Source of the DNA: Burkholderia cepacia ATCC 25416
GTDB taxonomy: Bacteria > Pseudomonadota > Gammaproteobacteria > Burkholderiales > Burkholderiaceae
Direction: 5' to 3'
Assembly (NCBI RefSeq): GCF_001411495.1
Contig: NZ_CP012981.1
Location: forward strand, 1,736,001 to 1,800,000
Length of the DNA stretch: 64,000 nt
Positions 45,226 to 61,547 of this stretch are shown piece after piece; position 1 is the stretch's first letter, and each line of letters opens with the position of its first letter. Under the pieces are notes generated by a model. It was not told the DNA's origin, searched no databases, and was given only the letters and a program-made list of their open reading frames with translations. The position numbers and the translations under genes are program-made.

Positions 45226-45565
45226 GAGAGGTAGGTTGTTACAAATCCTGACGCGGGTCGAAAAAGGATGCGATCGCTGCAACTCAACTGCGAGCGTATT
45301 CGGGGAATTTTAACGTATTGATTTGAATGAATATTTTTTCGGGGGAGGGTCCGGGGCGCTGTTTCAAGTTGTTAGCGACGTGGATTTTGACCCAACCCGC
45401 TTCTTATAATTGGTGGCCCTTCAACAAAATTAGCATTTCATGGTTTTGAGGGTTACGGTCAGCAGTTAGAATGCCCGCCTTGGGGGGACGTGCACGTCAT
45501 CGTCGCGTCCGGAGTTCGTGGCGGCTCGCGCTTGAGGCACGCCATGCATGACTAGAGGGAGCCTC
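45226..45565. promoter_or_regulatory. Divergent intergenic region: apaH and rml promoters
   Basis: These 340 bp are A/T rich between 45290 and 45440, the expected place for promoters of both genes. TATAAT at 45405-45410 is a good -10 box for rmlB, but no -35 box is properly spaced (TTGACC at 45387 is only 12 bp away). No JUMPstart/ops element was found. The rmlB ribosome-binding site is GAGGGA at about 45556. Confidence 0.55.
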
Positions 45566-46627
45566 ATGATTCTGGTGACGGGCGGCGCGGGTTTTATCGG
45601 CGCCAATTTCGTAATCGACTGGCTTAGTCAATCCGACGAGGCCGTGCTCAATGTCGATAAATTGACCTATGCAGGCAACCTTCGCACGCTGCAATCGCTG
45701 AACGGAAGCCCGAAGCACGTATTCGCCCGCGTGGACATCTGCGACCGCGCGGCACTCGACGCGCTGTTGGCCGAGCACCGGCCGCGCGCGATCCTGCATT
45801 TCGCGGCGGAAAGTCACGTCGATCGCTCGATTCACGGTCCGGCCGAGTTCGTTCAGACCAACGTCGTCGGCACCTTCACGCTGCTCGAGGCCGCGCGCCA
45901 GTACTGGAGCGCGTTACCCGACGCGGAGCAGGCCGGCTTCCGGTTCCTGCACGTGTCGACCGACGAAGTGTTCGGTTCGCTGTCCGCGACGGATCCGCAG
46001 TTCTCTGAAACGACACCGTACGCGCCCAACAGCCCGTACTCGGCGACGAAGGCGGGCTCCGATCACCTGGTGCGTGCGTATCACCACACGTATGGCCTGC
46101 CGACGCTCACGACCAACTGCTCGAACAACTACGGCCCGTACCAGTTCCCCGAAAAGCTGATTCCGCTGATGATTGCGAATGCACTCGCGGGCAAGCCGTT
46201 GCCGGTCTACGGCGATGGCCAGAACGTGCGCGACTGGCTGTATGTCGGCGATCACTGCAGCGCGATTCGCGAAGTGCTCGCACGCGGCACGCCGGGCGAG
46301 ACCTACAACGTCGGCGGCTGGAACGAAATGACGAACCTCGACGTCGTGCATACGCTGTGCGATCTGCTCGACGATGCCCGACCCAAGGCACAAGGCACGT
46401 ATCGCGACCAGATTACGTACGTGAAGGATCGTCCGGGGCACGATCGCCGTTACGCGATCGATGCGCGCAAGCTCGAGCGCGAACTCGGCTGGAAGCCGGC
46501 CGAGACGTTCGCAACCGGCCTCGCGAAGACGGTCTCCTGGTATCTCGACAACCAGGCGTGGTCGGACGAGGTGGCTTCGGGCGAATACCGCAAGTGGGTC
46601 GAGACCAATTACGCAGCGCGCGTTTGA
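45566..46627 (+). CDS. rmlB: dTDP-glucose 4,6-dehydratase RmlB
   Basis: The 353-residue product is an extended SDR: NAD-binding [13 protein letters not shown] at the N-terminus, the substrate and cofactor site with [13 protein letters not shown], and the catalytic [11 protein letters not shown]yr-X3-Lys. It converts dTDP-glucose to the 4-keto-6-deoxy sugar, the second step to dTDP-L-rhamnose. ATG 45566 follows GAGGGA; earlier in-frame codons do not. It heads a tight rmlBACD operon, which supplies rhamnose for the O-antigen. Confidence 0.97.
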
Positions 46628-46638
46628 CAGGAGAGGCG

Positions 46639-47532
46639 ATGGCACGCAAGGGCATCATTCTCGCCGGCGGTTCAGGCACACGGCTCTATCCGATCACGCA
46701 TGCAGTATCGAAGCAGCTGCTGCCGGTGTACGACAAGCCGATGATCTACTATCCGCTGTCGACGCTGATGATTGCCGGCATCCGGGACGTGCTGATCATC
46801 TCGACGCCGCAGGACACTCCGCGCTTCGAGTCGATGCTCGGCGACGGCAGCCAGTGGGGGATGAATATCCGGTATGCGACGCAGCCGTCGCCGGACGGGC
46901 TCGCGCAAGCGTTCGTCATCGGCCGGGACTTCGTTGGCAACGAGCCGTCGGCGCTCATCCTCGGCGACAACATTTTCTACGGGCACGATCTCGCGAAGCA
47001 GCTCGAGCGGGCCAGCGCGAAGGATACGGGCGCGACCGTATTTGCGTATCACGTTCAGGACCCCGAGCGGTATGGCGTGGTCGAGTTCGACCGCGAATTC
47101 CGCGCGATATCGATTGAAGAGAAGCCGGCAAAGCCGCGTTCGAGCTATGCGGTCACGGGGCTGTATTTCTACGACAGGCAGGTTTGCGACATCGCAGCCG
47201 ACATCAAGCCGTCGGCGCGCGGCGAGCTCGAGATCACCGATGTCAATTCGCGCTACCTGGCGGCGGGCCAGCTCGACGTCGAGCTCATGGGGCGCGGTTA
47301 TGCGTGGCTCGATACGGGTACGCACGATTCCTTGATCGAGGCGGCGACGTTCATCGCGACGCTGCAGAAGCGTCAGGGGCTCATGGTTGCGTGCCCCGAA
47401 GAGATCGCGTACCGCCGCAACTGGATCGACGCGGAGCAGGTGCTGAAACTGGCACAGCCGCTCGCGAAGAACGCCTACGGGCTGTATCTCCGGAACCTAC
47501 TCACCCATCAGGTCGCATGGCAATCCACGTAA
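46639..47532 (+). CDS. rmlA: Glucose-1-phosphate thymidylyltransferase RmlA
   Basis: The 297-residue product has the nucleotidyltransferase signature [20 protein letters not shown] (residues 8-27) and [13 protein letters not shown] at the metal site. It makes dTDP-glucose from glucose 1-phosphate and dTTP, the first step of dTDP-rhamnose synthesis. ATG 46639 follows AGGAGAGG, 11 bp after rmlB; the 3' end overlaps rmlC by 16 bp. Confidence 0.97.
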
Positions 47533-48068
47533 CGTCAACGGCACTGCCCGAAGTCAAGCTTATCGAGCCGAAGGTCTTCGGAGACGCGCGCGGGTATTTC
47601 TACGAGAGCTTCAACGCGCGCGAGTTTGCGGAGCACGTCGCTCCGGGTATCGAGTTCGTGCAGGACAATCACTCGCGGTCCGCAAAAGGCGTGCTGCGCG
47701 GGCTGCACTACCAGATCGAACACACGCAGGGCAAGCTGGTGCGCGTGGTTGAGGGCGAGGTGTTCGACGTCGCAGTCGATGTGCGCCGCAGTTCGCCCAA
47801 TTTCGGCAAGTGGGTCGGCGTGACGCTGTCCGCCGACAACCATCGGCAGCTTTGGGTTCCGCCGGGGTTCGCGCATGGCTTCCTTGTGGTGTCCGAGTCT
47901 GCTCAGTTTCTCTACAAGACGACCGATTATTGGTTTCCCGAGCACGAGCGCAGCATTGTCTGGAACGATCCGGACATCGGGATCGCGTGGCCGCTGGATG
48001 GCGAGCCGCTGCTGGCCGTCAAGGATGCCGCGGGCATGCGGTTGATGGACGCAGATCTTTTTGAGTGA
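47517..48068 (+). CDS. rmlC: dTDP-4-dehydrorhamnose 3,5-epimerase RmlC
   Basis: The 183-residue product is a cupin-fold epimerase with [12 protein letters not shown], the conserved basic and acidic surround of the active site in [17 protein letters not shown] (catalytic His in GLHYQ) and the conserved [11 protein letters not shown]. It epimerises the keto sugar at C3 and C5. The ATG lies inside the end of rmlA, so translation is coupled. Confidence 0.97.
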
Positions 48069-48075
48069 GGTCGTG

Positions 48076-48960
48076 ATGAATTCCGAGTCGACGATCCTCG
48101 TAACCGGTGTCACGGGTCAGGTAGGTTTTGAACTGCTGCGCTCGCTGCAGGGGCTCGGCCGCGTGGTGGAGTGCGACCGCTCGATGCTCGATCTGTCTGA
48201 TCTCGACCGGATCCGTGCTGTCGTGCGGGCGTTGCAGCCGGCCTTCATCGTGAATCCGGCTGCCTATACGGCCGTCGACAATGCAGAGGACGACGTCGAT
48301 GCGGCAAGACGCATAAATGCCGATGTGCCGCGGGTCCTGGCGGAAGAGGCTGCGCGCAGCGGTGCGGTGCTGATTCACTACTCGACCGATTACGTGTTCG
48401 ACGGAGCCAAGGCGGGCGCGTATACCGAGACCGATGCAGTGAATCCGCTGAACGTGTATGGGATGACCAAGCTTGAGGGCGAGCGTGCGATCGAGAACGC
48501 AGGGTGCGCGTACCTGACCTTGCGAACCAGCTGGGTATACGGGCGACGTGGCAGGAATTTCTTGCGCACGATGCTCAAGCTGGGCGCGGAGCGACCCGAA
48601 TTGCGTGTGGTTGCCGACCAGGTCGGCGCGCCGACCTGGTCGAAAACAATTGCAGCCGCGACTGCGCACATCCTCTCCAAAGGGCTGGCGGCCCATGATG
48701 AGGCCTGGTGGCAGGCGCGCTCCGGAACCTATCATCTGAGTGCGGCCGGCGAGACGTCCTGGCACGGTTTCGCCAAGGCGATTCTCGGCATCGCGATGGG
48801 GGATGACGCACCCGCTGTGGTGCCGATTTCCGCGAGCGAGTTTCCGGTGCGCGCACGTCGCCCGGCGAATTCGCGCTTGTCCCACGGCAAACTCGCCGAG
48901 ACGTTCGGCTTGCACCTGCCCGATTGGGAATACGCGCTGGGCCTCTGCATGGCCGACTGA
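48076..48960 (+). CDS. rmlD: dTDP-4-dehydrorhamnose reductase RmlD
   Basis: The 294-residue product is an SDR reductase with LVTGVTGQVGFELLRSL at the cofactor site, the YSTDYVFDGAK loop and YGMTKLEGE with the catalytic Tyr-X3-Lys. It reduces the intermediate to dTDP-L-rhamnose, completing the pathway. The ATG at 48076 follows GTGAGG; a TTG 15 bp upstream is an alternative. The end faces the minus-strand glycosyltransferase convergently across 165 bp, in which I see no clear terminator. Confidence 0.96.
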   Translation: MNSESTILVTGVTGQVGFELLRSLQGLGRVVECDRSMLDLSDLDRIRAVVRALQPAFIVNPAAYTAVDNAEDDVDAARRINADVPRVLAEEAARSGAVLIHYSTDYVFDGAKAGAYTETDAVNPLNVYGMTKLEGERAIENAGCAYLTLRTSWVYGRRGRNFLRTMLKLGAERPELRVVADQVGAPTWSKTIAAATAHILSKGLAAHDEAWWQARSGTYHLSAAGETSWHGFAKAILGIAMGDDAPAVVPISASEFPVRARRPANSRLSHGKLAETFGLHLPDWEYALGLCMAD

Positions 48961-49125: not shown

Positions 49126-50244
49126 CTAGCCGAGAATGCCAGTTGCCGCGAAACGGGCGGCCCAGCTGTTTGCGCTCCGGATCCGCGATACCTCGTCGTG
49201 CGTCGTCCGGTATTCGAGTGCCTCGACAACGATTGAAGACAGGTTCTCGGATCCGCTCGAGAGGAATGTACCGGGTTCGTCGCACCGTGTTGCCATTTCT
49301 CCGAAGGGGGTCGAGATGACCGGTAATCCGAGCGCTCTGTACTCGTAATACTTGATCGGATCGACACCGTCCGTGAGCGGGTTGCGCAGGAACGGAATCA
49401 GGCCGACGTCGAAGTCCGACATCGCGGCAAGAGCGGCGGCGTGTTTCAGCGGCGGAAGAATCTGCACGTTCTCGGGCAGCGCGATTTGCGGGGGATGGAA
49501 TAACGGCCCGATCAATCGAATCGTGTCCGCGGGGCGGCATTGCGCAAGCGCAGCGAGCCATTGCCAGTCGAACCAAGGCCCCATGGTGCCCAAGTAACCC
49601 AGTACATGCGGCCCGGCATGATCCGACGTCTTTTCGCGGAACGCCGGAAGGACGGCTGGATCGAGCCCGTTGTGGACCAGCCTGGCGTCAGGCCGAATAC
49701 TGCTCCAACTCGAGCGCAAGCCCGAAGACGATACGAAAACCGTGTCGACCTCGCGCGCGACAGCGAGTTCGGTGCGTTTCATCGCCGAGCGCGAAACGCC
49801 TCGATAGAACGACGGGAAGTCGTCCATCCTGTCGTAGAGCGACCGGGCGGGACGAGCCGCTCGTAACAAGTCGAGCGCGAGCCCGGACGGCTTCCCGACC
49901 GCGAGAAGCGTGTTGCGCTCGGCGCAGAATTGCACGACGCGACGCGTGATGTCACGCCATCCGAATCGATTGATTGCGGTGCCGAGGGGCAGTGGCTCAA
50001 GCGGAAGGCTGCGGATGCGGACGACGTCGAGCCAAGGCGGCGCGGCCGTATGCGCGTCGGACTTGCCTTCGCCGGATGGACGGCGCAAGTCTTGAAGCAT
50101 GGGCAGGCGGGTTGGATACGGATCGATCCAGAGCACACGGCCATGGGTTTCTTGATGAAACCACTCGACGAACTTGTGAGGTCGCTGTGCAAAGCTGCTC
50201 CATGGCACCGGCGACAGATAGACGAGTTGTTCGATCACACGCAT
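49126..50244 (-). CDS. Glycosyltransferase, GT-B fold (family 4/1-like)
   Basis: The 372-residue product is a cytoplasmic glycosyltransferase of the GT-B type. The N-terminal half includes SPVPWSSFAQRPHKFVEWF, a signature seen in putative O-antigen and capsule transferases. The C-terminal half has GYLGTMGPWFDWQWL and the sugar-nucleotide part DPIKYYEYRALGLPVISTP, with the typical Glu of the E-x7-E-like motif. It is the most distal gene of the minus-strand O-antigen operon and overlaps the upstream epimerase stop by 10 bp. Donor and acceptor are not predictable. Confidence 0.85.
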   Translation of the reverse strand: MRVIEQLVYLSPVPWSSFAQRPHKFVEWFHQETHGRVLWIDPYPTRLPMLQDLRRPSGEGKSDAHTAAPPWLDVVRIRSLPLEPLPLGTAINRFGWRDITRRVVQFCAERNTLLAVGKPSGLALDLLRAARPARSLYDRMDDFPSFYRGVSRSAMKRTELAVAREVDTVFVSSSGLRSSWSSIRPDARLVHNGLDPAVLPAFREKTSDHAGPHVLGYLGTMGPWFDWQWLAALAQCRPADTIRLIGPLFHPPQIALPENVQILPPLKHAAALAAMSDFDVGLIPFLRNPLTDGVDPIKYYEYRALGLPVISTPFGEMATRCDEPGTFLSSGSENLSSIVVEALEYRTTHDEVSRIRSANSWAARFAATGILG

Positions 50245-51335
50245 TGTTCCCGGATGACGTCGAAAATCCGCTGGGCTGCCTTTCCGTCACCGTAGGGCGA
50301 AACGCCGCGTGCAACCTTGCCGTATTCGTCGGCGTTGTCGAGCATCAGTTGGACCGCATTGACGATCGTATCGGTTTGAGTGCCGACGAGCCTGACAACA
50401 CCGGCTTCGACAGCTTCCGGGCGCTCGGTCTCGTCGCGCAACACCAGAACCGGTTTGCCCAGAGCTGGTGCTTCTTCCTGCACGCCGCCCGAGTCGCTGA
50501 GGATGAGGTACGAGCGCTGCATGGCGGCGACGAACGGCACATAGTCGAGCGGCGGGCAGAGTCGGATCCGGGCGTGGTGCGACAGCAGTTCGCGCGTCGT
50601 ACGCTGGACGTGCGGATTGGGATGTACGGGAAACAGCACCTCGATGTCGTCGTTGGCGTCGACAATCTGGCGAATGGCATGGCAGATCCGTTCGAGCGGG
50701 GCGCCGAAATTCTCCCGGCGATGCGCGGTGACCAGAATCAGCCGTTTCGTGTCGTCGATATCGACGCCGCAGGACGGATGTGTCCGCAAGACAGTGTGAA
50801 GCGCGTCGATGACGGTGTTCCCGGTCACCCAGATCTGGTCGCTGGGGATGTTTTCATGCAAGAGGTTGTCGCGCGAACTCTCTGTCGGCGCGAAATGCAG
50901 CCTTGCGAGGCGCCCCGCGAAAACGCGGTTCATCTCTTCAGGAAACGGATTGCCGAGATCGCGGGTACGCAGGCCTGCTTCAATATGACCGAACGGTATA
51001 TGCCGATAGAAGCATGCAAGCGCCGTGGCCATGACCGTCGTGGTGTCGCCTTGTCCCAGTACGAGATCGGGACGCTTGTCCACGAGCACGGCATCGATAC
51101 CGTCAAGCAGACGCGACGTCAGGCTGGCAAGCCCCTGATTCGGACGCATGATGTCGAGATCGACATCCGGTTTGATATCGAAACAGGTCAGGATCTGGTC
51201 GAGCAGATCGCGGTGTTGCGCGGTCGCGAGCACGTGCACCTTGAATCCCGGATCCGCTCGCAAACGCAGGATGACCGGCGCCATCTTGATGGCCTCCGGT
51301 CGCGTACCTACGACGCACAGTATGGTTCTAGACAT
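50235..51335 (-). CDS. wecB: UDP-N-acetylglucosamine 2-epimerase (non-hydrolysing)
   Basis: The 366-residue product has the WecB/MnaA fold: VVGTRPEAIKMAPVIL at the N-terminus, VLGQGDTTTVMATALAC, FGHIEAGLRTRD, VTAHRRENFG and SDSGGVQEEAPALGKPVLVL at the C-terminal half. It interconverts UDP-GlcNAc and UDP-ManNAc, a precursor of amino-sugar residues in polysaccharides. Start ATG 51335 lies 15 bp from the upstream stop. No UDP-ManNAc dehydrogenase gene is in this window. Confidence 0.94.
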   Translation of the reverse strand: MSRTILCVVGTRPEAIKMAPVILRLRADPGFKVHVLATAQHRDLLDQILTCFDIKPDVDLDIMRPNQGLASLTSRLLDGIDAVLVDKRPDLVLGQGDTTTVMATALACFYRHIPFGHIEAGLRTRDLGNPFPEEMNRVFAGRLARLHFAPTESSRDNLLHENIPSDQIWVTGNTVIDALHTVLRTHPSCGVDIDDTKRLILVTAHRRENFGAPLERICHAIRQIVDANDDIEVLFPVHPNPHVQRTTRELLSHHARIRLCPPLDYVPFVAAMQRSYLILSDSGGVQEEAPALGKPVLVLRDETERPEAVEAGVVRLVGTQTDTIVNAVQLMLDNADEYGKVARGVSPYGDGKAAQRIFDVIREQCV

Positions 51336-51349
51336 GCTGTCGCTACGAA

Positions 51350-54300
51350 TCAATCGATGTAGTCCAGATAGAAATGCGAGTAATCGCGCCACTTCTCCTT
51401 GAAGTAGTTCGCGTTGCGAAGGAATAGCTTGCGATAGGCCTCGCTGCCGCTGTCGGCGCCGGTCGTTTGATGGGGCTGATGGCGGATTCCGGACAAATCC
51501 CGGTAAGTGACCTTCATTCCGAGTGCCTTGACCTGGAAGCACAGGTCCGTATCTTCAAAGCAGGTCGGGTCATAGAAGGTATCGAATCCTTGCGTCGCAT
51601 CGAACGTGCGCCGACGCATGAAGAAGCCGCTGGTACCGAGGAAGCCGATGTCGGCACGATAGCCGTCGCGGATTGCCGCCGCGTTCATCGCCCGATTCGG
51701 ACAATAGTCGGCGATCATGCCGCCGAGATCGGTGCGCGTGGCGTCGAACCAGCCTGCATTCCATCCGATGACGCCGACGCTCGCGTCGTTTTCCAGGACG
51801 TGCAGCGCTTCCTCGAAACCCGACGCGCCCACAAACCACTGATCGCTGTCGAAGAAGACGATGTACTTGCCCGTGCTGTGCTGAACGCCGAGATTACGTC
51901 CCGACGAGCAGCCATTCTCCGGGTTGCGGACCAGCCTGACGTTGGGAAATTCGCGCTCGACGAGCTCTGCACCACCATCGGAACTTGCGTTGTCGACGAC
52001 AATCACTTCCGCTATGTACGGCGCAGCATGCTGGAGCAGGGTCTGCAGGCAGCGTGCGATGATGCCCGCGTTGTTGTGAATCAGGATAACGACGCTGACG
52101 TCGTGCCGGGGCTGCGGCGGGCACAGCTGCTCGACGCGGCCGAGCCAACTGTTGCCCGCAACGAAGATGTCGTCGTTTTGTATGACGGGTTCTGCCGCAG
52201 CGAGTGCGCCGCATTGCGCCGCGAACGACGCAAGGTCCGTGCGAACGTGTAACAGCGGGGTGGCTGTCACGCCAAGTTCCATCGAACACACGACTGGCTT
52301 GCGCTGAAGCAGCGCTGCATAAATACCTGCGGTGGAGTCGGCGCTGCGCAGGCTCCGCGCGCCAAGCGGGAAGAACATGAAATCCGCATGGGCGATGTAG
52401 GCCGGCACTTCGCTCGTGTGCCGCATGCCAAGCATGACGACGTTATCCGGCAGGCCCGGCGTCAGTTGCCCGTCGGCGATCACGCAGAACGTGACGTTGA
52501 CGTTGCGCTCCGCGGTTTCCTTGAGCCACTGGTAATCCACCGAGTCGAGTCCGTCGACCGAGTAGAACAGTGCGACGCTGCGGCGCTTGGACGGCATGTC
52601 GCCCGGACGGTTGTACTGCTTGTAGACGTCGAAGACCGTATGAACCGCGGCACCGGGCAGCAGCTCGATTTTTTCCCGGGCACGCTGCGGGATGGTGTCT
52701 GCAAGTGCCGGCATGCCGACGGTGCATCGATCGGCATCGACGGCGATCGACTCGAGGATGCGCATGGCCTGGCCATCGTGGCTCCAGTCCTGTGCGACGT
52801 CGAGGATTGTTTCGAGCCCGCGATTGCGCGCGAACTCGAAAAAGGGTGTGACCCGGGAGTCGGGCACGCCGATGATCAATTTCGCGCTTTCCGATACCTG
52901 ACCGAAAATGTCCTCGATCTTCGTCGGATCGATATATTCGTGAATCAATCCGGGAATGCGGGGCGTGAGCGGCGCGGGCGTCGATCCCGTATCCGGAGGC
53001 GCGACCAGATAGACAACGCGATGGCCCGCGGCGAGCGCCGTCGTGGTCAGTTGTGCGTAGCGATGCCCGGAACCAGCCCAGTCGTACGCGTGAGCGGCGA
53101 TGACGATGATTTCTTCGCGTTGCAGCTTGGCTGCTGCGCGGAACGAGAGGCGTTGATCTTCCGCAGTCGGAGTGCCGCTTGCCACTTCGATGGCGGCCTG
53201 CTGGATCTGCTGCTGTGCTTGCTGATACCGGTAATGGCGTCGTGCAGCAGACACGAGCGCGCGTACGCCGCCATTGCGCAGAATATAGGCGGCACGGCTC
53301 ATGTAGGTGAGAGGGGCGGACATGTACCGGCGAAAAAGCATAGAGGATCCCGAAGTGGAGTGAATTGCGGCTACGGCCACATTGGGTTGCGGGGGTGCTT
53401 CGGACTCGGCGTGACCCTGCTCGAATTGCCGGATCGTTGCCTTGAGGCTTGAAATTTTATCAGCTTGTTCCTCCGCCGCTTTTCGAGCGGAGTCCTTGAG
53501 CGTCGTCGTTTGCGCGGCATGCACTTGTGACGCGTGCTTGACGAACGCTTCCGCCGCGAGCAGTTTATGGTTCGCCAGTTCCAATCGGTTCTGAAGCTCG
53601 GCGACCTGTTCTTCCTGTTGCGCAAGCTGTGCGTCGCGGAAATGCAGCAAATCCACTGTTTTCCCGAGTTCCGTCTCAAGCTGGCCGACCCGTGCGTCTT
53701 TCTCGGCGAGTTGTGAATCGCGGTAGCGCAGCAGGTCGAGCGCCTTCTCGCTCATGCGAGCGGCGCCATTCTTTTGCCAGACGAGCTGCTCGAGCCATGT
53801 GCTCATCCAATCCAGCTGCTGGCTGCTCCAGCGGCGCGGGGCTCCGCCCGACGCGGCGCGAACGGCCGCAAAAGCGTGGTCCAGGACGGTTGAATGTACG
53901 CAGGCCGAAGCGTTTAGCGCATCGAGCTTTTCCTGCGCGATGATCCAGGGCGCGCCATCCGGGTGTGTCAGCCTGCGCACCGCGGCAGTGAAGTCTGCTG
54001 CGTCGTCGTTCAGTTGAAGGCGCAGCGACGCCGGAAGGCCCGCCATATCGTGCGCACGCGCCATCTTGACGTCATATTCCAGCGCCGCGACCGGGATCGA
54101 TTTTCCGAGTGCGAGGATGCTTCCGTGCAGGCGCATCGAGAACGCGGCGTCGCACTCGCCGATAACCGCGAATGCCTCGTCGGGCGTGATCCCGTCAATG
54201 ATGACACTTTCGATATGGGGCGACACCGCGAGCTTGAGGTGCTCGAGAAAGGATCGATCGGTGAGACGCTCGTGGTCGCCGACGCTCCATTGGAAGCCGA

Positions 54301-55006
54301 GCCACACGATCGACCAGCTGTCGTCCAGCGCTTCATTCAACGCGGAGACGAGTTTTTCTTCCCAGTTCCGGTTGAACTCCCACGATCGGGCAATGACCGC
54401 CAGCTTCTTCTTTGTCCCCAACGGGGCGAGTGTGCCGGAAACGTCGACTTCGGCGGGCGGGCGGCTGACGAATGCCCAGCCCGGATCAGCGCCGACGGGA
54501 ATGTCCCGACTTACGCCGATATCGTGCAGAAGCGCCTCGGAGTCCGTATCGCGCAGCGAAACGTGATCCACATGCGTGAACACGTCGCGCGTGATGTCGC
54601 GGCTGTCCGGGTTGACCAGCGGTCCGACGCCGTGTGCCCAGATGACCGTGCGAACCCCGAACTGCCGAGCCATGTAAAAAATCCGCGCATAGCCCGCGAT
54701 ATCGTTTTGGGTCGGGTCGTAAAGTGCCTCGACGTTGAACGGATGATGATCCTGAAAGATGCCGCCACCGCCGAATACCAGCAGATCGGCGTCGGACAGT
54801 GCGCGGCCGACGGCACCGAGATTGAAATAGTCGACGGCGGCGATGCCGTGGGCATGCGTCGTATATTCGGGATTGATGCTCAGTGCGACGAGCTCGCCGC
54901 CGCGCTCCCGAACCTGGCGAGCGAGCAGGCCCAGCAACAATTCGTCGCCGACGTTGGGTGCGCCGTAATAGCCGACCGCGACGACCTTGATGCTGCGCGC
55001 TTGCAT
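51350..55006 (-). CDS. Pyruvyltransferase / coiled-coil / GT-B / GT2 fusion protein
   Basis: The 1218-residue protein fuses several activities. Residues about 1-400 form a polysaccharide pyruvyltransferase domain (VAVGYYGAPNVGDELLLGLL, VFGGGGIFQDHHPF, and SMRLHGSILALGKSIPV). About 410-530 is a charged heptad-rich coiled coil. About 628-955 is a GT-B-like domain (HAYDWAGSGHRYAQL, HEYIDPTKIEDIFG). About 967-1218 is a GT2 domain (SVVILIHNNAGIIARCLQTL, the DSD motif in FFDSDQWF, and FEDTDLCFQ). The start at 55006 is set by GGAG 9 nt upstream; ATGs at 55024 and 55027 overlap the Wzt stop and are alternatives. Coiled-coil capping enzymes set chain length in other ABC-exported O-antigens, so a capping role is suggested. 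Confidence 0.9.
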   Translation of the reverse strand: MQARSIKVVAVGYYGAPNVGDELLLGLLARQVRERGGELVALSINPEYTTHAHGIAAVDYFNLGAVGRALSDADLLVFGGGGIFQDHHPFNVEALYDPTQNDIAGYARIFYMARQFGVRTVIWAHGVGPLVNPDSRDITRDVFTHVDHVSLRDTDSEALLHDIGVSRDIPVGADPGWAFVSRPPAEVDVSGTLAPLGTKKKLAVIARSWEFNRNWEEKLVSALNEALDDSWSIVWLGFQWSVGDHERLTDRSFLEHLKLAVSPHIESVIIDGITPDEAFAVIGECDAAFSMRLHGSILALGKSIPVAALEYDVKMARAHDMAGLPASLRLQLNDDAADFTAAVRRLTHPDGAPWIIAQEKLDALNASACVHSTVLDHAFAAVRAASGGAPRRWSSQQLDWMSTWLEQLVWQKNGAARMSEKALDLLRYRDSQLAEKDARVGQLETELGKTVDLLHFRDAQLAQQEEQVAELQNRLELANHKLLAAEAFVKHASQVHAAQTTTLKDSARKAAEEQADKISSLKATIRQFEQGHAESEAPPQPNVAVAAIHSTSGSSMLFRRYMSAPLTYMSRAAYILRNGGVRALVSAARRHYRYQQAQQQIQQAAIEVASGTPTAEDQRLSFRAAAKLQREEIIVIAAHAYDWAGSGHRYAQLTTTALAAGHRVVYLVAPPDTGSTPAPLTPRIPGLIHEYIDPTKIEDIFGQVSESAKLIIGVPDSRVTPFFEFARNRGLETILDVAQDWSHDGQAMRILESIAVDADRCTVGMPALADTIPQRAREKIELLPGAAVHTVFDVYKQYNRPGDMPSKRRSVALFYSVDGLDSVDYQWLKETAERNVNVTFCVIADGQLTPGLPDNVVMLGMRHTSEVPAYIAHADFMFFPLGARSLRSADSTAGIYAALLQRKPVVCSMELGVTATPLLHVRTDLASFAAQCGALAAAEPVIQNDDIFVAGNSWLGRVEQLCPPQPRHDVSVVILIHNNAGIIARCLQTLLQHAAPYIAEVIVVDNASSDGGAELVEREFPNVRLVRNPENGCSSGRNLGVQHSTGKYIVFFDSDQWFVGASGFEEALHVLENDASVGVIGWNAGWFDATRTDLGGMIADYCPNRAMNAAAIRDGYRADIGFLGTSGFFMRRRTFDATQGFDTFYDPTCFEDTDLCFQVKALGMKVTYRDLSGIRHQPHQTTGADSGSEAYRKLFLRNANYFKEKWRDYSHFYLDYID

Positions 55007-55023
55007 GGTGTCGTTCTCCGTCA

Positions 55024-56331
55024 TCATTCGAACTCGAATACCGGACACGGCGCGAGCCACCCCGATCCACTGTTGTTTTCCGGAAGCACGTCGATGTGGC
55101 CACCATAGGGCAGGCGCGCGTGCCGCTTGTATTCGCCGGAGGCGATATCGCCGACGCCGACCGCCAGCACATAGCGGTTGCCGGAGAAGCTCGCGCGCAT
55201 CTTCCAGGTGAACTGGTACGTTCCGGCGGACAGGGGCGGCAGCGCAATATTCATGTGCTGGGTGGTCGCGCTCCACAGCACGATATCGTCGATGCTTTTG
55301 ATCTGAAGTCCGAAGCAAGGCTTCGGGTTCGGCTCGGACACGCTGATCGATACGACGACGCGGAACGCTTCATTGAACGAGAAGGTCGTGCGTTCCTTGC
55401 CGTTCGCATCCTCGATCTTCACGTCGAGAATCGACGTCCGGTCCGACAAGGCCGTCATGGCATCGCTTACCGCCGAGCTGGCGGGGGAATCGGTGTCGGT
55501 GTGCTGTGTCGGCACCTCGATGTCGATCGCGCTCCCGCCTTCTTCGTCGACGAGGTCGTTCGCATAGAGCTTGACCACGTCGCGGCACGGACCGTCCTTT
55601 ACCAGCCGGCCCCGCTTCAGGTAGATGGCCCGGTCGCAGTACTCGACGAGGGTGTTGGTGGAGTGTGTTACCAGCAGGATCGTGACGCCTTCCTTCTGCA
55701 TCTTCCGGATCCGCGTCAGGCATTTGGTCTGAAACGCGGTATCGCCGACCGCAAGTGCCTCGTCGACCACCAGGATATCGGGGGAGACGTGAATGGCTAC
55801 CGCGAATGCGAGCCGGACGTACATGCCCGACGAGTAGGTCTTGACGGGCTGGTCGATGAATTCGCCGATGTCGGCGAACGCTTCGATTTCGTGAAAACGC
55901 GCGCGGATTTCTTCCGACGTGATGCCCATGATCCGTGCAGACAGCATCACGTTCTCGCGGCCGCTGAATTCCGGATTGAACCCGGCGCCGAGTTCCAGCA
56001 GTGCGGAGATCCGGCCGTTGACCGTGACCGAGCCGTCGCTCGGCGACAGCGTGCCGGCAATGATTTGCAGCAATGTCGACTTTCCGGAACCGTTTCTGCC
56101 AATGATTCCGATGGTCTCGCCCCGCCGGACGGGGAAAGAGACGTCGTGCAGCGCCCAGAAATCGCGACCGTATTGCCGGGAATTGCTCCCAGGGAGCTTG
56201 ATGCGAGTCGCGAGCGAGTGCCGCAGCCGGTCCGCCGGTTTGTCGTAGATACGGAAGCACTTGGAAAGGTGCTCGACGTTGACGAGCAGCTGTTCCGTTT
56301 GGCTTGTAGGTTCAGGCTCGCGAGTTTGCAT
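55024..56331 (-). CDS. wzt: O-antigen ABC transporter ATPase Wzt with C-terminal binding domain
   Basis: The 435-residue product has Walker A (IGRNGSGKSTLLQIIAG), the ABC signature in YSSGMYVRLAFAVA and Walker B (ILVVDEALAVGD), over about residues 20-265. A beta-rich C-terminal domain of about 160 residues follows (IDDIVLWSATTQHMNIALPP ... FTWKMRASFSGNRYVLAVGV). That domain in Wzt proteins recognises the terminal modification of the finished O-polysaccharide. It energises export across the inner membrane with the Wzm encoded 3.6 kb upstream. The start ATG 56331 is before the ABC fold; its 3' end overlaps the fusion-protein start region. Confidence 0.94.
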   Translation of the reverse strand: MQTREPEPTSQTEQLLVNVEHLSKCFRIYDKPADRLRHSLATRIKLPGSNSRQYGRDFWALHDVSFPVRRGETIGIIGRNGSGKSTLLQIIAGTLSPSDGSVTVNGRISALLELGAGFNPEFSGRENVMLSARIMGITSEEIRARFHEIEAFADIGEFIDQPVKTYSSGMYVRLAFAVAIHVSPDILVVDEALAVGDTAFQTKCLTRIRKMQKEGVTILLVTHSTNTLVEYCDRAIYLKRGRLVKDGPCRDVVKLYANDLVDEEGGSAIDIEVPTQHTDTDSPASSAVSDAMTALSDRTSILDVKIEDANGKERTTFSFNEAFRVVVSISVSEPNPKPCFGLQIKSIDDIVLWSATTQHMNIALPPLSAGTYQFTWKMRASFSGNRYVLAVGVGDIASGEYKRHARLPYGGHIDVLPENNSGSGWLAPCPVFEFE

Positions 56332-56463
56332 GAGAGGGAGCGAGTTAGCTTTCACGTGTTCAGCGCAGGCGGAAAAAAGACGATCGCACAGTAGGCTCAG
56401 GGGTCGGATGCTGACTTGCCTCGCGGCCACCACGGTGGCACGGCGAGGTCAGCATTCGTTCGG

Positions 56464-57702
56464 TTACCGCGAATGCATCAGCCTATTGTAGAGGTCCCGT
56501 TTGGTGCGAACGCACGCATCGAGATCATACTTGTCCTTCAGGAGCTGACGGGCGTTCGTGGACAGCGTCGCCAGCATCTCGCGATTCTGGGCGAGCTCGA
56601 TGATTGTGTCGGCAAATTCAGCCGCCGTATCGCAAATGACGATATCCCGACGGTTGACGGCGCCCAGCCCCTCGCAGCCCTTTGCCGTGCTGAGAACGGG
56701 AATGCCGTTGCTCATCGCTTCCAGAATCTTGACGCGCACGCCGCCGCCTGAAAGCAGGGGAACAAACAGTAGATGTGCATCCGCCAGAATCGGGTCGAGC
56801 GACGGCACGAAGCCGTGAACGAAGATGTGTCGTCCGTCGTGCAGCGCCTTGAGATCGTCCGGCGGGTTGCCTCCGGTGAAATGGAGCTTGATGTTGTGCG
56901 TCTCGAGCTTGTCGCGTACCAGTGGGAGAATGTCGCGGACAAACCACGCAACGCCTTCCGCATTCGGATACCACCAGAAGCCACCCATCCAGAGCAGGTT
57001 GACCTCGTTGGTCGGCTTCGCTCGGTAGTCGGTGTCCTTGATCGGGAAGCACAGCGGCAAATAGTGCTTCTCCACGGGCGCCTTCACGCGCTCCATGTCT
57101 TCGCGTGAAATGAACGTCATGGCGTCGAAGCGCCAGACGTTGTCGATTTCGACGCGTCGGGCGTTGCGGCGGCTGATCTCGGCGATGCGCGCGACCGCTG
57201 CTTTTTTCCAGCCTGTCAGCTGCGCGGGAATCCAGAACGGGAAGAGATCGGATTCGATGTTGTGACTGACCAGGACGGCCGGCAACGCCGGGAAGAACTT
57301 GCGGAAAAACGCCAGATGACTGCTGTGCACCTCAAGCATGTCGATCTTCTTTTCCTTGACGATCCGGCGCGCACTGCGAATTGCCGCAGGGCTGAAGTAG
57401 CTCGCATCCATGAACGGAAGGCCATGGAAGCAATGGACCAGTGAATGCCATGCTCGTCCGGGCGTACCCATGTCGGCAGGCATGGCAGCCCGCGGCTCCA
57501 CGTGGACCGATTTGAAATGTCGTTCATATAGCGAACGATTTTCCTCGATCTTCTTTTTTTCCTCGTCTCCACCGATGGTGAACAGATGGAAATCATACTC
57601 GTCGACCAGCGGCGCGAGCGTATTCATCACGTAGATCGGGCCCCCCGCGCTGGCAGGAAGCGGCGGGGACAGCGTAAAAACGAGGATGCTCTTTTTCTGC
57701 AT
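56464..57702 (-). CDS. Glycosyltransferase, GT-B fold (family 4-like)
   Basis: The 412-residue product has an N-terminal domain beginning SILVFTLSPPLPASAGGPI and a C-terminal nucleotide-sugar domain with WMGGFWWYPNAEGVAWFV, VHGFVPSLDPILADAHLLFV and the retaining-GT segment SGGGVRVKILEAMSNGIPVL, containing the E-x7-E-type glutamates. It probably adds one O-antigen sugar in the cytoplasm. ATG 57702 is 2 bp from the upstream stop; a TTG 21 bp upstream is less likely. It lies between the acyltransferase and Wzt genes in the operon. Confidence 0.9.
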   Translation of the reverse strand: MQKKSILVFTLSPPLPASAGGPIYVMNTLAPLVDEYDFHLFTIGGDEEKKKIEENRSLYERHFKSVHVEPRAAMPADMGTPGRAWHSLVHCFHGLPFMDASYFSPAAIRSARRIVKEKKIDMLEVHSSHLAFFRKFFPALPAVLVSHNIESDLFPFWIPAQLTGWKKAAVARIAEISRRNARRVEIDNVWRFDAMTFISREDMERVKAPVEKHYLPLCFPIKDTDYRAKPTNEVNLLWMGGFWWYPNAEGVAWFVRDILPLVRDKLETHNIKLHFTGGNPPDDLKALHDGRHIFVHGFVPSLDPILADAHLLFVPLLSGGGVRVKILEAMSNGIPVLSTAKGCEGLGAVNRRDIVICDTAAEFADTIIELAQNREMLATLSTNARQLLKDKYDLDACVRTKRDLYNRLMHSR

Positions 57703-57703
57703 A

Positions 57704-58339
57704 TTAGCCACGGGATTCGTCAAACACGTCGGTGTCGAAGAAAGGAGAAAAGTCGGTCAGATAGGCAATGTCGGGATTGCGTTGACCGATGATTTTTGCG
57801 GGCACACCACCGACCACGGTGAAATCCGGGACGTCTTTCGTGACGACCGCGCCGGCCGCGACGACTGCGCCTTTGCCGATCGTCACGCCTGGCAGGATAA
57901 TGGCGCGCGCGCCCAGCCATGCGTGGTCGTGGATGGTCACGACGCCGCCGATCGACATGAAACCCGGGTGGTTGTGATCGTGATGCAGGCTGAGGAGGCA
58001 GCACTGGAACGAGATGTTGACGTTGTTTCCGATCTCGATGCCCGTGCGACCGTCCAGGTAGATCTCACGATTGAGCACGCAGTTGTCGCCGATGCGCACG
58101 TTGCAGCGTGTGTGGTACCCGGTGAAGAACTGCCGCATGCTGACGTGCGTTCGTTGGCCGATGACGATACCCAGCACGCGTCGATAGTAGAAGTTGCGGA
58201 CTCTTTCAATCGGCATGCGCGCAATGAAGTTGTTGCCGATGTAGTACTTGAGCGCGGCCAGAAAAAAATACGTCGACGACGCTAGCAGGCGGGCCTTGAT
58301 CCTGCTTTTCATGCGGCCTCGGAAGCTTGCATTGGTCAT
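57704..58339 (-). CDS. Hexapeptide-repeat acyltransferase (O-antigen O-acetyltransferase-like)
   Basis: The 211-residue product has left-handed beta-helix hexapeptide repeats ([28 protein letters not shown], then [20 protein letters not shown], about residues 85-175) and the closing segment [11 protein letters not shown]. It has the catalytic His region HHDHNHPG typical of maltose/galactoside-acetyltransferase-like enzymes. The first 60 residues ([18 protein letters not shown]) are amphipathic and may associate with membrane. It probably transfers an acetyl group to an O-antigen sugar. Its stop is 2 bp before the next start. Confidence 0.9.
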
Positions 58340-58428: not shown

Positions 58429-59856
58429 CTAGCTTCGACCGTAGTTGTCGTCGAAGCGGACGATGTCGTCTTCGCCGAGGTAGTCGCCGCTCTGGACTTC
58501 GATCATCACGAGGTCGACGACGCCCGGATTGGTCAGACGGTGCTTGTGTCCGGCCGGGATATAGGTCGATTCATTGGTGCGCAGGTAAAACTCCTCATCG
58601 TTGTTGACGACGAGGGCCATGCCGCTCACCACGATCCAGTGTTCGCTGCGATGATGATGCAACTGCAGGCTGAGGCTTGCGCCCGGTTTGACCTCGATTC
58701 GCTTGATCTTGAAGCGGGTGCTTTCTTCGAGAACCGTATACATGCCCCACGGACGGCCTACCGTTCGATGTACCCGGAAGGTTTCGTGGCCTTGCGACTT
58801 GAGGGCCGCGTAGACGTGCCGAACGTCTTGCGCGCGATTGCGATCGGCAATGAGGAGTGCGTCGGGGGTGTCGACGACCAGGAGGTCCTTGACGCCTACG
58901 GCGCCGACCAGCCGGTTGTCGCTACGGATGTAGCAATTGCTGACATCGTGGAGCAGCGCTTCGCCGTCCACACGATTGCCGTGGTCGTCCGGTTTCAACA
59001 GGTCGCCGAGCGCATTCCACGAACCGATATCGCTCCAGCCGATATCGCAGCGCACGACCTCGACCTTGTCGGAGCGCTCCATCAGCGCGTAGTCGATCGA
59101 AATATCGGGCGTGCGATTCAGCAGGTCACCGTTCAGTTCGACCAATGAAACGCCGCCGCCTTCCGACTGACGAGACTGCGCGATGCATGCACGCGTGGCT
59201 TCGAGCACGTCGGGGCAATGTTTTGCCATTTCCGCCAGCAGGAATGCGGCGGTAAAGCAGAACATGCCGGAGTTCCACAGGAACGATCCCGACTCGACGT
59301 ATTGCCTGGCCACGTCCGCCGTCGGCTTTTCCACGAATCGCTTGACCCGCGTGCCGTCTGCCTCGATGTATCCGTATGCGGTTTCCGCAAACGTCGGCGT
59401 GATGCCGAAGGTGACCAGCGCACCCTTGAGCGCCAAGGCGGCAGCTTCCTGGACGGCGGTCGCGAAGGCGGCATCGTCTGTCACGAGGTGGTCCGCGGGA
59501 AGCACCAGCAGGATTGCATTTTCGCCGAGCGTTGCGGCAACACGCAGCGCGGCGGCGGCGATCGCGACGGCCGTATTGCGGCCGAACGGCTCGAGGATGA
59601 ACGACGTCGACAGATGCCCGGTATTGACGGTGCTGAATTCGTCGCTTGTCTTGAAGTACAACTCGCGGTTCGTGACGGTCACGACTTCGGTGACGCCCGG
59701 AAGCTGGGCGCCGCGCTTGAATGCCTTTTGCAGCAGGCTCTCGCCATCTTCGAGGCGGATGAACGGCTTCGGATGGGATTCGCGCGAAACGGGCCACAGG
59801 CGAGAGCCTGCGCCGCCACACAGGATGGTGGGAACTATTTGGGGCTGCGTCGACAT
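58429..59856 (-). CDS. manC: Mannose-1-phosphate guanylyltransferase / mannose-6-phosphate isomerase ManC
   Basis: The 475-residue product is the bifunctional type II enzyme: the pyrophosphorylase signature [19 protein letters not shown] (residues 15-33), [14 protein letters not shown] in the middle, and a C-terminal cupin-like isomerase domain with [18 protein letters not shown] and [14 protein letters not shown]. It makes GDP-mannose, so the O-antigen should contain mannose or a GDP-mannose-derived sugar. No phosphomannomutase or GDP-mannose-modifying enzyme is encoded in the window. It is 89 bp upstream of the acyltransferase on the same strand. Confidence 0.96.
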
Positions 59857-59973: not shown

Positions 59974-60801
59974 TTACAGGACGTCTGCGAATCCCTTTCG
60001 GGTCCGCTGGAACCACCAGAATCCGAACCACGCGAGAAGCAGCGATGCGATCATGCAGGTTAGCCAGTTCGTCCAGTCGGGGGGGTGCCCGAAGATCAGC
60101 GTGTTGCGTCCCTCTTCGATGATGAACGTAAGGGGGTTGAGTTCGATCCAGGATCGATACTGTGGCGGCAGATTCGACACGGGGTAGAAAACCGGCGACA
60201 GGAACATCAGCACTGACGTGATGACACCGGTAATCTGCGAAATGTCTCGAATGTAGACGCCCAAAGCCGACAGAAACCATGCGAGCCCCAGTGAGCCGAC
60301 GATCAGCGGCAGCATGACGACGGGGAACAGGATGGCGGTCCAGGGCAGCGAGTGGATAAGGATGCACTCGGCGATGATCAGGACCAGCAGGCTGATCGCG
60401 CTGTGGAACAGCGCTGACGCGAGCGCGACCACCGGCAGTATCTCGAGCGGGAAAATAACCTTCTTGACGTAGTTGACGTTTGCAAGGATCAACGTCGGCG
60501 CCCGGTTGATGCACTCTGCCAGCAGGCTGTGGAGGATCAGGCCGACGAACAGGACGATCGCGAAGCTTGCCTTGTCGTCGCTCGTGGTACCCCACCGCGA
60601 CTTGAAGATGACGGAGAAGAAGAAGGTGTAGACGACGAGCATCAGCACGGGATTGAAGAACGACCACGCAAGACCCATTGCTGACCCGCGATAGCGCCCG
60701 ACGACCTCGCGTTGAGTCATTTGCAGAATCAGTCCGCGATTACGGTAAATGCTACGGGCGATCGCCATCGGCGATGCCGGGTGCTTCGAGTTCGGATTCA
60801 T
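59974..60801 (-). CDS. wzm: O-antigen ABC transporter permease Wzm
   Basis: The 275-residue inner-membrane protein has the ABC-2 permease pattern: six predicted membrane segments, with QREVVGRYRGSAMGLAWSFF near the N-terminus (typical Wzm/TagG signature) and FLSPVFYPVSNLPPQYRSW in the fifth-loop region. It forms the export channel for the undecaprenyl-linked O-polysaccharide with Wzt. ATG 60801 is chosen; a second start at 60768 would shorten it by 11 residues. It is the first gene of the minus-strand block; the promoter must lie in the gap to 61547. Confidence 0.93.
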   Translation of the reverse strand: MNPNSKHPASPMAIARSIYRNRGLILQMTQREVVGRYRGSAMGLAWSFFNPVLMLVVYTFFFSVIFKSRWGTTSDDKASFAIVLFVGLILHSLLAECINRAPTLILANVNYVKKVIFPLEILPVVALASALFHSAISLLVLIIAECILIHSLPWTAILFPVVMLPLIVGSLGLAWFLSALGVYIRDISQITGVITSVLMFLSPVFYPVSNLPPQYRSWIELNPLTFIIEEGRNTLIFGHPPDWTNWLTCMIASLLLAWFGFWWFQRTRKGFADVL

Positions 60802-61547
60802 CAAGTTGCGTGTCGTTGCATTCGGATCGGTGATGGAGCCCCCAACCCCTCGCCCACGTGGCGCAGCCATTGTTGCGGGGTGTCGTGAGTCTGAAAAAGG
60901 CGGCAATCCAGTTGGCCGCGACGTTTCAATGTGCTCCCGACTTCAATCCTGAGCGATCGGGCAAACAAGGTGCCATCGCCCGCAACGTATTCTAATGCAG
61001 GCCATCCGTCCAGCCCTGGACTGAAGCGCTCTCTGCCTTGATCGGCGGCGCTTGGTGACGCTGGGTTGAGACCGGACCGGTACCGACTGACGACGGCTCG
61101 CCCATGGAAACCAAGCATGATCGCCGGAATGCCGATGACGCGCAATAGATGTTAATGTTTTCACATCTTTTAACAACTAGGCGTCCGGCGGGGGATTGAC
61201 ATGCTCAGGCCTCCTGGTGTTTATGAGATACGGCATTCGGCGCCGCGAGAGAGGCGCGTCCTGGAAGGGGCGCGTATCTCGTGCTGGAACCCGTCCGGCC
61301 GTGGCTCGCCCTGGTCGCCGATCAGGGCCGAACGCGTTGGGCCGGCACGGATCGAGGGCAGCGGCATTGCACGGCGTCCCGGGACGGGCGCGTCCGGCAA
61401 GGGTGCGAGCAGTTAGAATTGCACCCGTATCGCGAGCACGCGGCAGGCATTCCCTGCACGCCTGACAAATGAGTAAGCCCGCTGTCTCCCAGACGGGCCA
61501 GCCAACCCATCGCGCTTGCTGCAGTCAAGCGCTTAGCCGAATTCCGG
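60802..61547. promoter_or_regulatory. Divergent intergenic region of the O-antigen locus
   Basis: These 746 bp separate the two divergent O-antigen blocks and hold no gene I can support. An inverted repeat AGATGT-N10-ACATCT at 61147-61168 is followed by TTTT and lies in a short A/T-rich island; it may be an operator or a weak terminator. TTGACA at 61196 has no well-spaced -10 box. No JUMPstart element was found. Confidence 0.45.

What the first reader, a model, noticed from the sequence alone, without database searches (positions are those of the whole stretch)
51350..55006. Pyruvyltransferase-coiled-coil-double glycosyltransferase: a possible all-in-one O-antigen cap and ruler
In ABC-exported O-antigens such as E. 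coli O9a, a capping enzyme with a coiled coil measures chain length and Wzt recognises the cap through its C-terminal domain. Here one protein carries a pyruvyltransferase domain, a 120-residue coiled coil and two glycosyltransferase domains, and is encoded directly behind a Wzt that has the recognition domain. Pyruvylation as an export cap, built into a synthase with its own ruler, would be a new variant.
Basis: inference. Interest (0 to 1): 0.72.

Follow-up and report, generated by a model that had tools for sequence, protein, structure and literature searches.

The report
Pyruvate-capping O-antigen terminator with coiled-coil ruler
A Burkholderia surface-sugar gene cluster encodes a protein that probably ends each sugar chain with a pyruvate tag at a length set by a coiled-coil arm, beside an export pump with the matching tag reader; experts had already predicted such systems, and gene comparisons here support the pairing of tag and reader and suggest that one of the protein's two sugar-adding domains no longer works.

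Summary
In detail: one 1225-aa ORF (ATG 55027) has a CsaB-like pyruvyltransferase, a predicted ~114-residue helix, a GT-B domain and a GT2 domain, and overlaps the stop codon of a Wzt with a Wzt_C reader. Reader and cap enzyme are co-inherited: in fetched loci 13 of 13 Wzt proteins beside a pyruvyl protein carry one reader type (152-266 bits); 47 of 48 others score 32 bits or less and one has no match. This survives polymerase changes in both directions, although the two genes are adjacent, so linkage may contribute. Spacer length runs from 48 to 276 residues. 'Double glycosyltransferase' is doubtful: GT-B motif SPIK[VI]FEY is missing in 79 of 81 pyruvyl fusions, present in 38 of 39 relatives without the pyruvyl domain. 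Pyruvyl loci lacking it all have a separate GT4 and acetyltransferase (10 of 10, window included); 0 of 6 loci keeping it do; one methyltransferase locus (L088) lacks all three. Pyruvate as length-controlling cap was named in print in 2023 as an unvalidated candidate (Burkholderia vietnamiensis, Pseudomonas protegens). So: a predicted variant of capped ABC-exported O-antigens, with comparative support and a probable pseudo-glycosyltransferase. I found no biochemistry on this family.

The parts
51350..55027 (-). pyruvyltransferase / coiled-coil / GT-B / GT2 fusion protein, 1225 aa
54071..54955 (-). polysaccharide pyruvyltransferase domain (PS_pyruv_trans); N24xG26D27, R158xxxS162, R298-L-H300, K320 kept in at least 97% of 82 sequences (1224-aa numbering from 55024)
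   Evidence: Pfam E 2e-39; NCBIfam CsaB model 182.7 bits, below its 213.1 cut-off; residues
53408..53749 (-). predicted coiled-coil ruler, helix 426-539
   Evidence: spacer length 48-276 aa over 82 sequences
52118..53125 (-). GT-B domain without the SPIK[VI]FEY motif: probable pseudo-glycosyltransferase
51386..52108 (-). GT2 (GT-A) glycosyltransferase domain (limits approximate); DSD and ED motifs kept in 57 of 57 sequences
55024..56433 (-). Wzt, ATP-binding subunit of the ABC exporter (upstream end of ORF; true start probably inside)
55084..55440 (-). Wzt_C reader domain (carbohydrate-binding module) of the type that accompanies pyruvyl fusions
   Evidence: Pfam E 8e-15
59974..60906 (-). Wzm, ABC-2 membrane subunit (start uncertain)
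   Evidence: Pfam E 3e-29
56464..57723 (-). GT4-type glycosyltransferase (called GT56), in every fetched pyruvyl locus whose GT-B motif is lost
57704..58339 (-). hexapeptide acetyltransferase (called HEX), same distribution as GT56
50235..51335 (-). UDP-GlcNAc 2-epimerase WecB (UDP-ManNAc supply); in 8 of 13 fetched pyruvyl loci and also in methyltransferase-capped L061, L088 and L129
   Evidence: TIGR00236 E 1e-143
49126..50244 (-). glycosyltransferase (called GT49), weakly TuaH-like (40 bits, far below that model's cut-off)
58429..59856 (-). ManC, GDP-mannose synthesis
   Evidence: TIGR01479 545 bits, over its cut-off
45548..48960 (+). rmlBACD, dTDP-rhamnose synthesis (rmlC and rmlD by family match; rmlB and rmlA by Pfam class and position)

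Best explanation
The protein is the chain terminator and part of the polymerase of an ABC-exported O-antigen. The GT2 domain, with GT4 enzymes encoded next to it, builds the chain on its lipid carrier at the membrane. The coiled coil (about 114 residues, roughly 17 nm at 0.15 nm per residue) holds the pyruvyltransferase away from the polymerising site. Once a chain is long enough to reach it, PEP-dependent pyruvylation of the terminal sugar stops growth. The Wzt_C domain then recognises the pyruvylated end and licenses export. The GT-B domain is probably a scaffold that has lost donor binding, its step having moved to the neighbouring GT4. Shown: domain anatomy, conserved PEP-site residues, co-inheritance of cap enzyme and reader, variable spacer length, motif loss. 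Inferred: pyruvate chemistry, terminal position, length control, export gating, loss of GT-B activity.
For: (1) Active site: CsaB R148, R306, H308 and K328 (R148, H308 and K328 linked to PEP binding by mutagenesis, R306 by docking; PMC10435577, passages) match R158, R298, H300 and K320, near-invariant in 82 sequences. The mapping is mine, by motif spacing. Six of the 13 were in the model and L059 is a near-copy of the window; L118, L121, L122, L128, L130 and L131 are outside it (L121 is close to L022). In 398 Burkholderiaceae genomes the 5 strong reader hits are exactly the 5 with the full fusion. (4) Ruler: in 56 nearest-neighbour pairs, 20 of 51 spacer gaps of 7 or more residues are multiples of 7 (chance 1/7, p 1e-5). 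In L118 the spacer is a 42-bp x 8.1 tandem repeat. (5) GT-B motif: 2 of 81 pyruvyl fusions against 38 of 39 relatives.
Against: No biochemistry was found, and the polysaccharide structure is unknown. Wzt directly precedes the cap-bearing gene, so reader and cap domain could move together by linkage alone. The ATP-binding part of Wzt also follows the cap to some degree (64-89% identity to the window in the pyruvyl loci compared, near-copy L059 aside, against 55-57% in methyltransferase-capped loci), so the travelling unit may be the whole Wzt. The loci are related, so counts are not independent events. 165 of 500 shuffles of the query's spacer also score as some coil, and the 3.5-residue periodicity test failed for the query (p 0.56) and for 5 of 8 others. 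Outside the spacer 3 of 8 gaps of 7 or more residues are also multiples of 7, so there is no usable contrast, only the 1/7 null. Three of 82 spacers are only 48 residues long. WecB does not follow the cap. Methyltransferase locus L088 lacks the GT-B motif by my pattern and has neither GT56 nor HEX. Klebsiella O1 has a terminal pyruvate that does not gate export. Loss of a motif is not proof of inactivity.
Confidence: 0.74

Rival explanations
1. The pyruvyltransferase decorates repeat units along the chain, and Wzt_C reads the polymer rather than a cap; the coil merely tethers domains, and reader and pyruvyl domain stay together because their genes are adjacent.
For: Pyruvylation of repeat units is common in bacterial polysaccharides (general knowledge; review PMC6801904 seen only in search listings); no structure is known here; the two genes overlap.
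Against: The enzyme sits at the far end of a predicted long helix.
Confidence: 0.13
2. Terminal pyruvate is an optional epitope, as with WbbZ in Klebsiella O1, and does not control length or export.
For: WbbZ adds a terminal pyruvate without gating export (PMC10629545, Discussion).
Against: The O1/O2 transporter lacks a reader module, whereas all 13 pyruvyl loci fetched, and the window, have the same reader type. No coil on WbbZ is mentioned in the parts I read.
Confidence: 0.08
3. The GT-B domain is active with an altered donor site, so the protein is a true two-glycosyltransferase polymerase like WbbB.
For: The fold is confidently modelled; GumK, the top Foldseek match, is a glycosyltransferase solved with UDP bound; L088 also lacks the motif without having GT56.
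Against: SPIK[VI]FEY is in 38 of 39 relatives and 2 of 81 pyruvyl fusions, and the stretch shows no replacement motif shared by the family. In pyruvyl loci a separate GT4 is present where the motif is lost (10 of 10, window included) and absent where it is kept (0 of 4; 0 of 6 with two methyltransferase loci).
Confidence: 0.22

Closest known systems
WbbB (Klebsiella O12 / Raoultella terrigena)
   Same: Single polypeptide with an N-terminal terminator, a coil and two C-terminal GT modules, served by a cap-reading transporter (PMC11231755)
   Different: Cap is beta-Kdo, not pyruvate; WbbB has two working polymerase modules, here one looks inactive and partner GTs would be needed
ORF6 of Klebsiella O7 (methyltransferase-kinase, coil, two GT2)
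   Same: Terminator domain, coil, GT modules, with a further GT supplied by a separate protein
   Different: Methylphosphate cap; two GT2 modules
WbdD/WbdA of E. coli O9a
   Same: Coiled-coil ruler and Wzt reader of the cap
   Different: Methylphosphate cap; polymerase is a separate protein
WbbZ of Klebsiella O1
   Same: Terminal pyruvylation of an ABC-exported O-antigen
   Different: No reader on the transporter, not required for length or export
[quoted passage not shown] 2023)
   Same: Same proposed chemistry and role; probably the same family, but those sequences were not identified here
   Different: One sentence in the Discussion; no test of reader pairing or GT state in the parts I read
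CsaB (Paenibacillus alvei)
   Same: Pyruvyltransferase domain and PEP-site residues
   Different: Modifies a Gram-positive wall polymer; score below the CsaB equivalog cut-off (182.7 of 213.1 bits)

Membership tests
Capped ABC-exported O-antigen systems (WbdD/WbbB type) | Wzm/Wzt ABC exporter in the locus | tested here: met
Capped ABC-exported O-antigen systems (WbdD/WbbB type) | Wzt carries a C-terminal reader domain | tested here: met
   Wzt_C E 8e-15
Capped ABC-exported O-antigen systems (WbdD/WbbB type) | Terminator enzyme at the distal end of a coiled coil | tested here: met
   (sequence and model only)
Capped ABC-exported O-antigen systems (WbdD/WbbB type) | Coil length sets chain length | not testable with these tools
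   only indirect: spacer 48-276 aa, heptad-step gaps without a usable contrast
Capped ABC-exported O-antigen systems (WbdD/WbbB type) | Reader recognises the cap and gates export | tested here: inconclusive
   co-inheritance of reader and cap enzyme supports it but gene linkage could contribute; binding not tested
WbbB-type single-protein polymerase-terminator | Two working polymerase GT modules in the same polypeptide | tested here: inconclusive
   two GT folds present, but the GT-B motif is absent; activity itself untested
Polysaccharide pyruvyltransferase (PF04230) | Profile match over the cut-off and conserved PEP-site residues | tested here: met
   136.6 bits against cut-off 25.3
Polysaccharide pyruvyltransferase (PF04230) | PEP-dependent pyruvyl transfer to a sugar | not testable with these tools
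   needs an assay
CsaB equivalog | TIGR03609 score above the curated cut-off | tested here: not met
   182.7 bits against 213.1

The most novel reading that the evidence does not exclude
Terminal pyruvate is a further length-controlling cap chemistry beside methyl, methylphosphate and Kdo, read by its own Wzt_C type. Cap enzyme and reader form one exchangeable unit that has been joined to at least three polymerase arrangements, once on a conjugative plasmid. In the main lineage the first GT module has decayed into a scaffold while a separate GT4 took over its step.
Probability: 0.52. Interest if true: 0.66.

Novelty: new variant of a known kind. Interest (0 to 1): 0.52.

Why it matters
Methyl, (methyl)phosphate and Kdo caps are described for length-controlled ABC-exported glycans (PMC9445017, passages). 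This family offers another with a matched reader type, and natural partners that share the GT2 but differ in cap and reader. That makes cap recognition by Wzt testable with existing genes and gives glycoengineers a candidate export tag. If the GT-B module is inactive, polymerase modules can be kept as scaffolds, which would mislead annotation of 'dual' glycosyltransferases.

Tried and rejected
A CsaB-like pyruvyl-ManNAc cap: attractive because WecB follows the fusion, but WecB is missing from the fetched stretch in 5 of 13 pyruvyl loci and present in methyltransferase-capped L061, L088 and L129, so it is not cap-specific.

Simple hydrophobic periodicity as a coil test: p below 0.05 in only 3 of 9 sequences and not in the query; replaced by COILS-type scoring with shuffles.

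Weak reader relatives (28-32 bits: L110-L113): no pyruvyl profile match in the fetched stretches, so I take them as family background.

Kelly 2023's named strains: the sequences were not identified here. Two P. protegens papers (PMC10715155, PMC9213528; passages only) have no word beginning 'pyruv' in their main text. Mann et al. 2019, the likely fuller census, and the WbbB and WbdD ruler papers are not held, so earlier description of this very family cannot be excluded. Searches on print.

The fold search covered only the GT half; the pyruvyl part of the other model was too poor to use. That first structure job was sent without an alignment by oversight.

Full report

SETTING. The genome is 8.6 Mb; the closest named homolog, 98% identical, is from Burkholderia lata. 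The cluster reads Wzm, ManC, acetyltransferase (HEX), GT4 (GT56), Wzt, fusion, WecB, GT49 on the minus strand, next to rmlBACD on the plus strand. A PF00953 transferase and a PF02719 enzyme follow just beyond the window, which resembles published Burkholderia O-antigen loci (gene list in PMC5462993, passages). That it makes O-antigen is inferred.

FAMILY. A full-length search listed 120 of 150 hits. Of the 120, 81 carry PS_pyruv_trans and Glycos_transf_2, named ones being from Burkholderia, Caballeronia, Paraburkholderia, Pseudomonas, Limnohabitans, Stenotrophomonas, Frateuria, Dyella and others. In 82 sequences (these and the query) the pyruvyl motifs and the GT2 are strongly conserved and the spacer is not; its length runs from 48 to 276 residues, median 137. 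The other 39 listed hits share the GT half with another N-terminus (such as a methyltransferase or GT4 domain) or none. The fusion is rare: at E 1e-50, 7 of 398 Burkholderiaceae genomes match, 5 of them over the full length and 2 over the GT half only, and only the window's own in 369 genomes of the class. Stand-alone pyruvyltransferases with a short C-terminal coil also exist (4 of 9 hits).

CAP AND READER ARE CO-INHERITED. I fetched the surroundings of the Wzt_C places found in 37 of 65 Burkholderia genomes and of relatives elsewhere. A profile from 7 readers beside pyruvyl fusions was scored on 57 Wzt proteins and on 4 later loci. All 13 beside a pyruvyl protein score 152-266 bits. Of the 48 others, 47 score 32 bits or less and L129 has no match at E 1e-3. 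Six of the 13 were in the model and L059 is a near-copy of the window, which was; L118, L121, L122, L128, L130 and L131 were not, though L121 is close to L022. The 48 include identical copies (L061 and L062) and loci with two Wzt genes. The window's own Wzt is not in the count. L096-L100 gave no protein meeting my Wzt criteria (ATP-binding match over 150 bits, over 350 aa) and are not counted. Genome searches with the profile found 5 strong hits in 398 Burkholderiaceae genomes, exactly the 5 with full fusions, all in or near the model; the next hit has 34 bits and no pyruvyl neighbour. In 91 genomes of the genus of the Stenotrophomonas maltophilia E301 genome there were 4 strong hits, each with the fusion next to Wzt. 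In 369 class genomes there were the window's own and 3 weak hits without a pyruvyl match in the fetched stretch.

SWAPS. Methyltransferase-capped L061 has a GT2 63% identical to the window's, as close as the two Stenotrophomonas fusions, yet its reader shows only a 20% match over 109 residues, against 50-51% over 164-169 for Stenotrophomonas. Its reader is instead 45% identical to that of methyltransferase-capped L088, whose GT2 is only 32% identical to the window's. Two cautions: Wzt and the cap domain are neighbours, so recombination in the spacer would carry both by linkage; and the ATP-binding part of Wzt shows the same trend more weakly (64-89% against 55-57% identity to the window). Fourteen readers (13 plus the window) share 30 invariant residues, among them R420, R437 and R440; that these bind the carboxylate is a guess.

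RULER. In 56 nearest-neighbour pairs, 20 of 51 spacer gaps of at least 7 residues are multiples of 7 (chance 1/7, p 1e-5). Pairs share members, so this overstates the certainty. Outside the spacer only 8 gaps are that long and 3 of them are multiples of 7, so no contrast can be drawn. In L118 the spacer contains a 42-bp, 8.1-copy tandem repeat, that is 14-residue units, although the COILS-type score does not call it a coil.

THE FIRST GLYCOSYLTRANSFERASE IS PROBABLY INACTIVE. The GT-B motif SPIK[VI]FEY is present in 38 of 39 listed relatives without the pyruvyl domain (the exception, P0082, begins just after the spacer region, is 47% identical to the query and may be a truncated pyruvyl fusion) but in only 2 of 81 pyruvyl fusions (P0078, P0081). 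Reading this motif as the donor site rests on general knowledge of GT4 enzymes. GT2 keeps DSD and ED in 57 of 57. In the 9 fetched pyruvyl loci without the motif, and in the window, GT56 and HEX are present; in 6 fetched loci with the motif or a close variant of it (pyruvyl L118, L128, L130, L131; methyltransferase L061, L129) neither is. L128 was fetched after the pattern was seen because its fusion keeps the motif, and it fitted. L088, a methyltransferase locus left out, lacks the motif by my pattern and has no GT56 or HEX match, so the rule is claimed for pyruvyl loci only. The loci are related, so this may be one or a few evolutionary events.

COMPARISON WITH WHAT IS KNOWN. Cap, ruler and reader are described for E. 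coli O8/O9a and Klebsiella O12, O4 and O7 (PMC11231755, PMC10629545; named sections and passages), and cap recognition by a Wzt reader has been solved structurally in Aquifex aeolicus (PMC9445017, passages). Klebsiella O1 shows terminal pyruvylation by WbbZ that neither sets length nor gates export. Kelly et al. [quoted passage not shown] The concept is therefore in print. What I did not find in print, within seven searches, is the reciprocal cap-reader pattern or the decayed GT-B; the most relevant census (Mann et al. 2019) could not be read.

VERDICT. Observation confirmed, interpretation partly supported, a predicted variant of a known kind. The evidence is comparative throughout; I found no enzyme activity, polysaccharide structure or export phenotype for this locus.

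Noticed in passing
L118:15339-15677: 42-bp, 8.1-copy in-frame tandem repeat in the spacer of a pyruvyl fusion on plasmid pBYT1-3: a possible route for rapid change of ruler length.
   Followed up: partly
L118:11703-22062: A Wzm/Wzt, pyruvyl-fusion and wecB glycan cluster carried on a 41.8-kb plasmid typed as conjugative.
   Followed up: partly
P0122-P0125: Stand-alone pyruvyltransferases of 466-469 aa ending in a short coil; P0124 is named Brucella intermedia, a species that also has a GT4-coil-GT-GT2 protein (P0088). Whether they share a locus was not checked.
   Followed up: partly
L062:9431-12543: Methyltransferase-type fusion whose C-terminal part lies in another frame than the rest; its relative L061 is open throughout.
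   Followed up: no
L066, L071-L073, L077, L079, L080, L082: Burkholderia loci with two Wzt genes within a few kilobases, several of them beside different large glycosyltransferase proteins: possibly two glycans exported from one locus.
   Followed up: no
window 24835-30579: 1914-aa YadA-type trimeric autotransporter (ESPR, stalk, anchor) in a lower-GC stretch, followed by an EAL-domain protein at 30584-31477.
   Followed up: no
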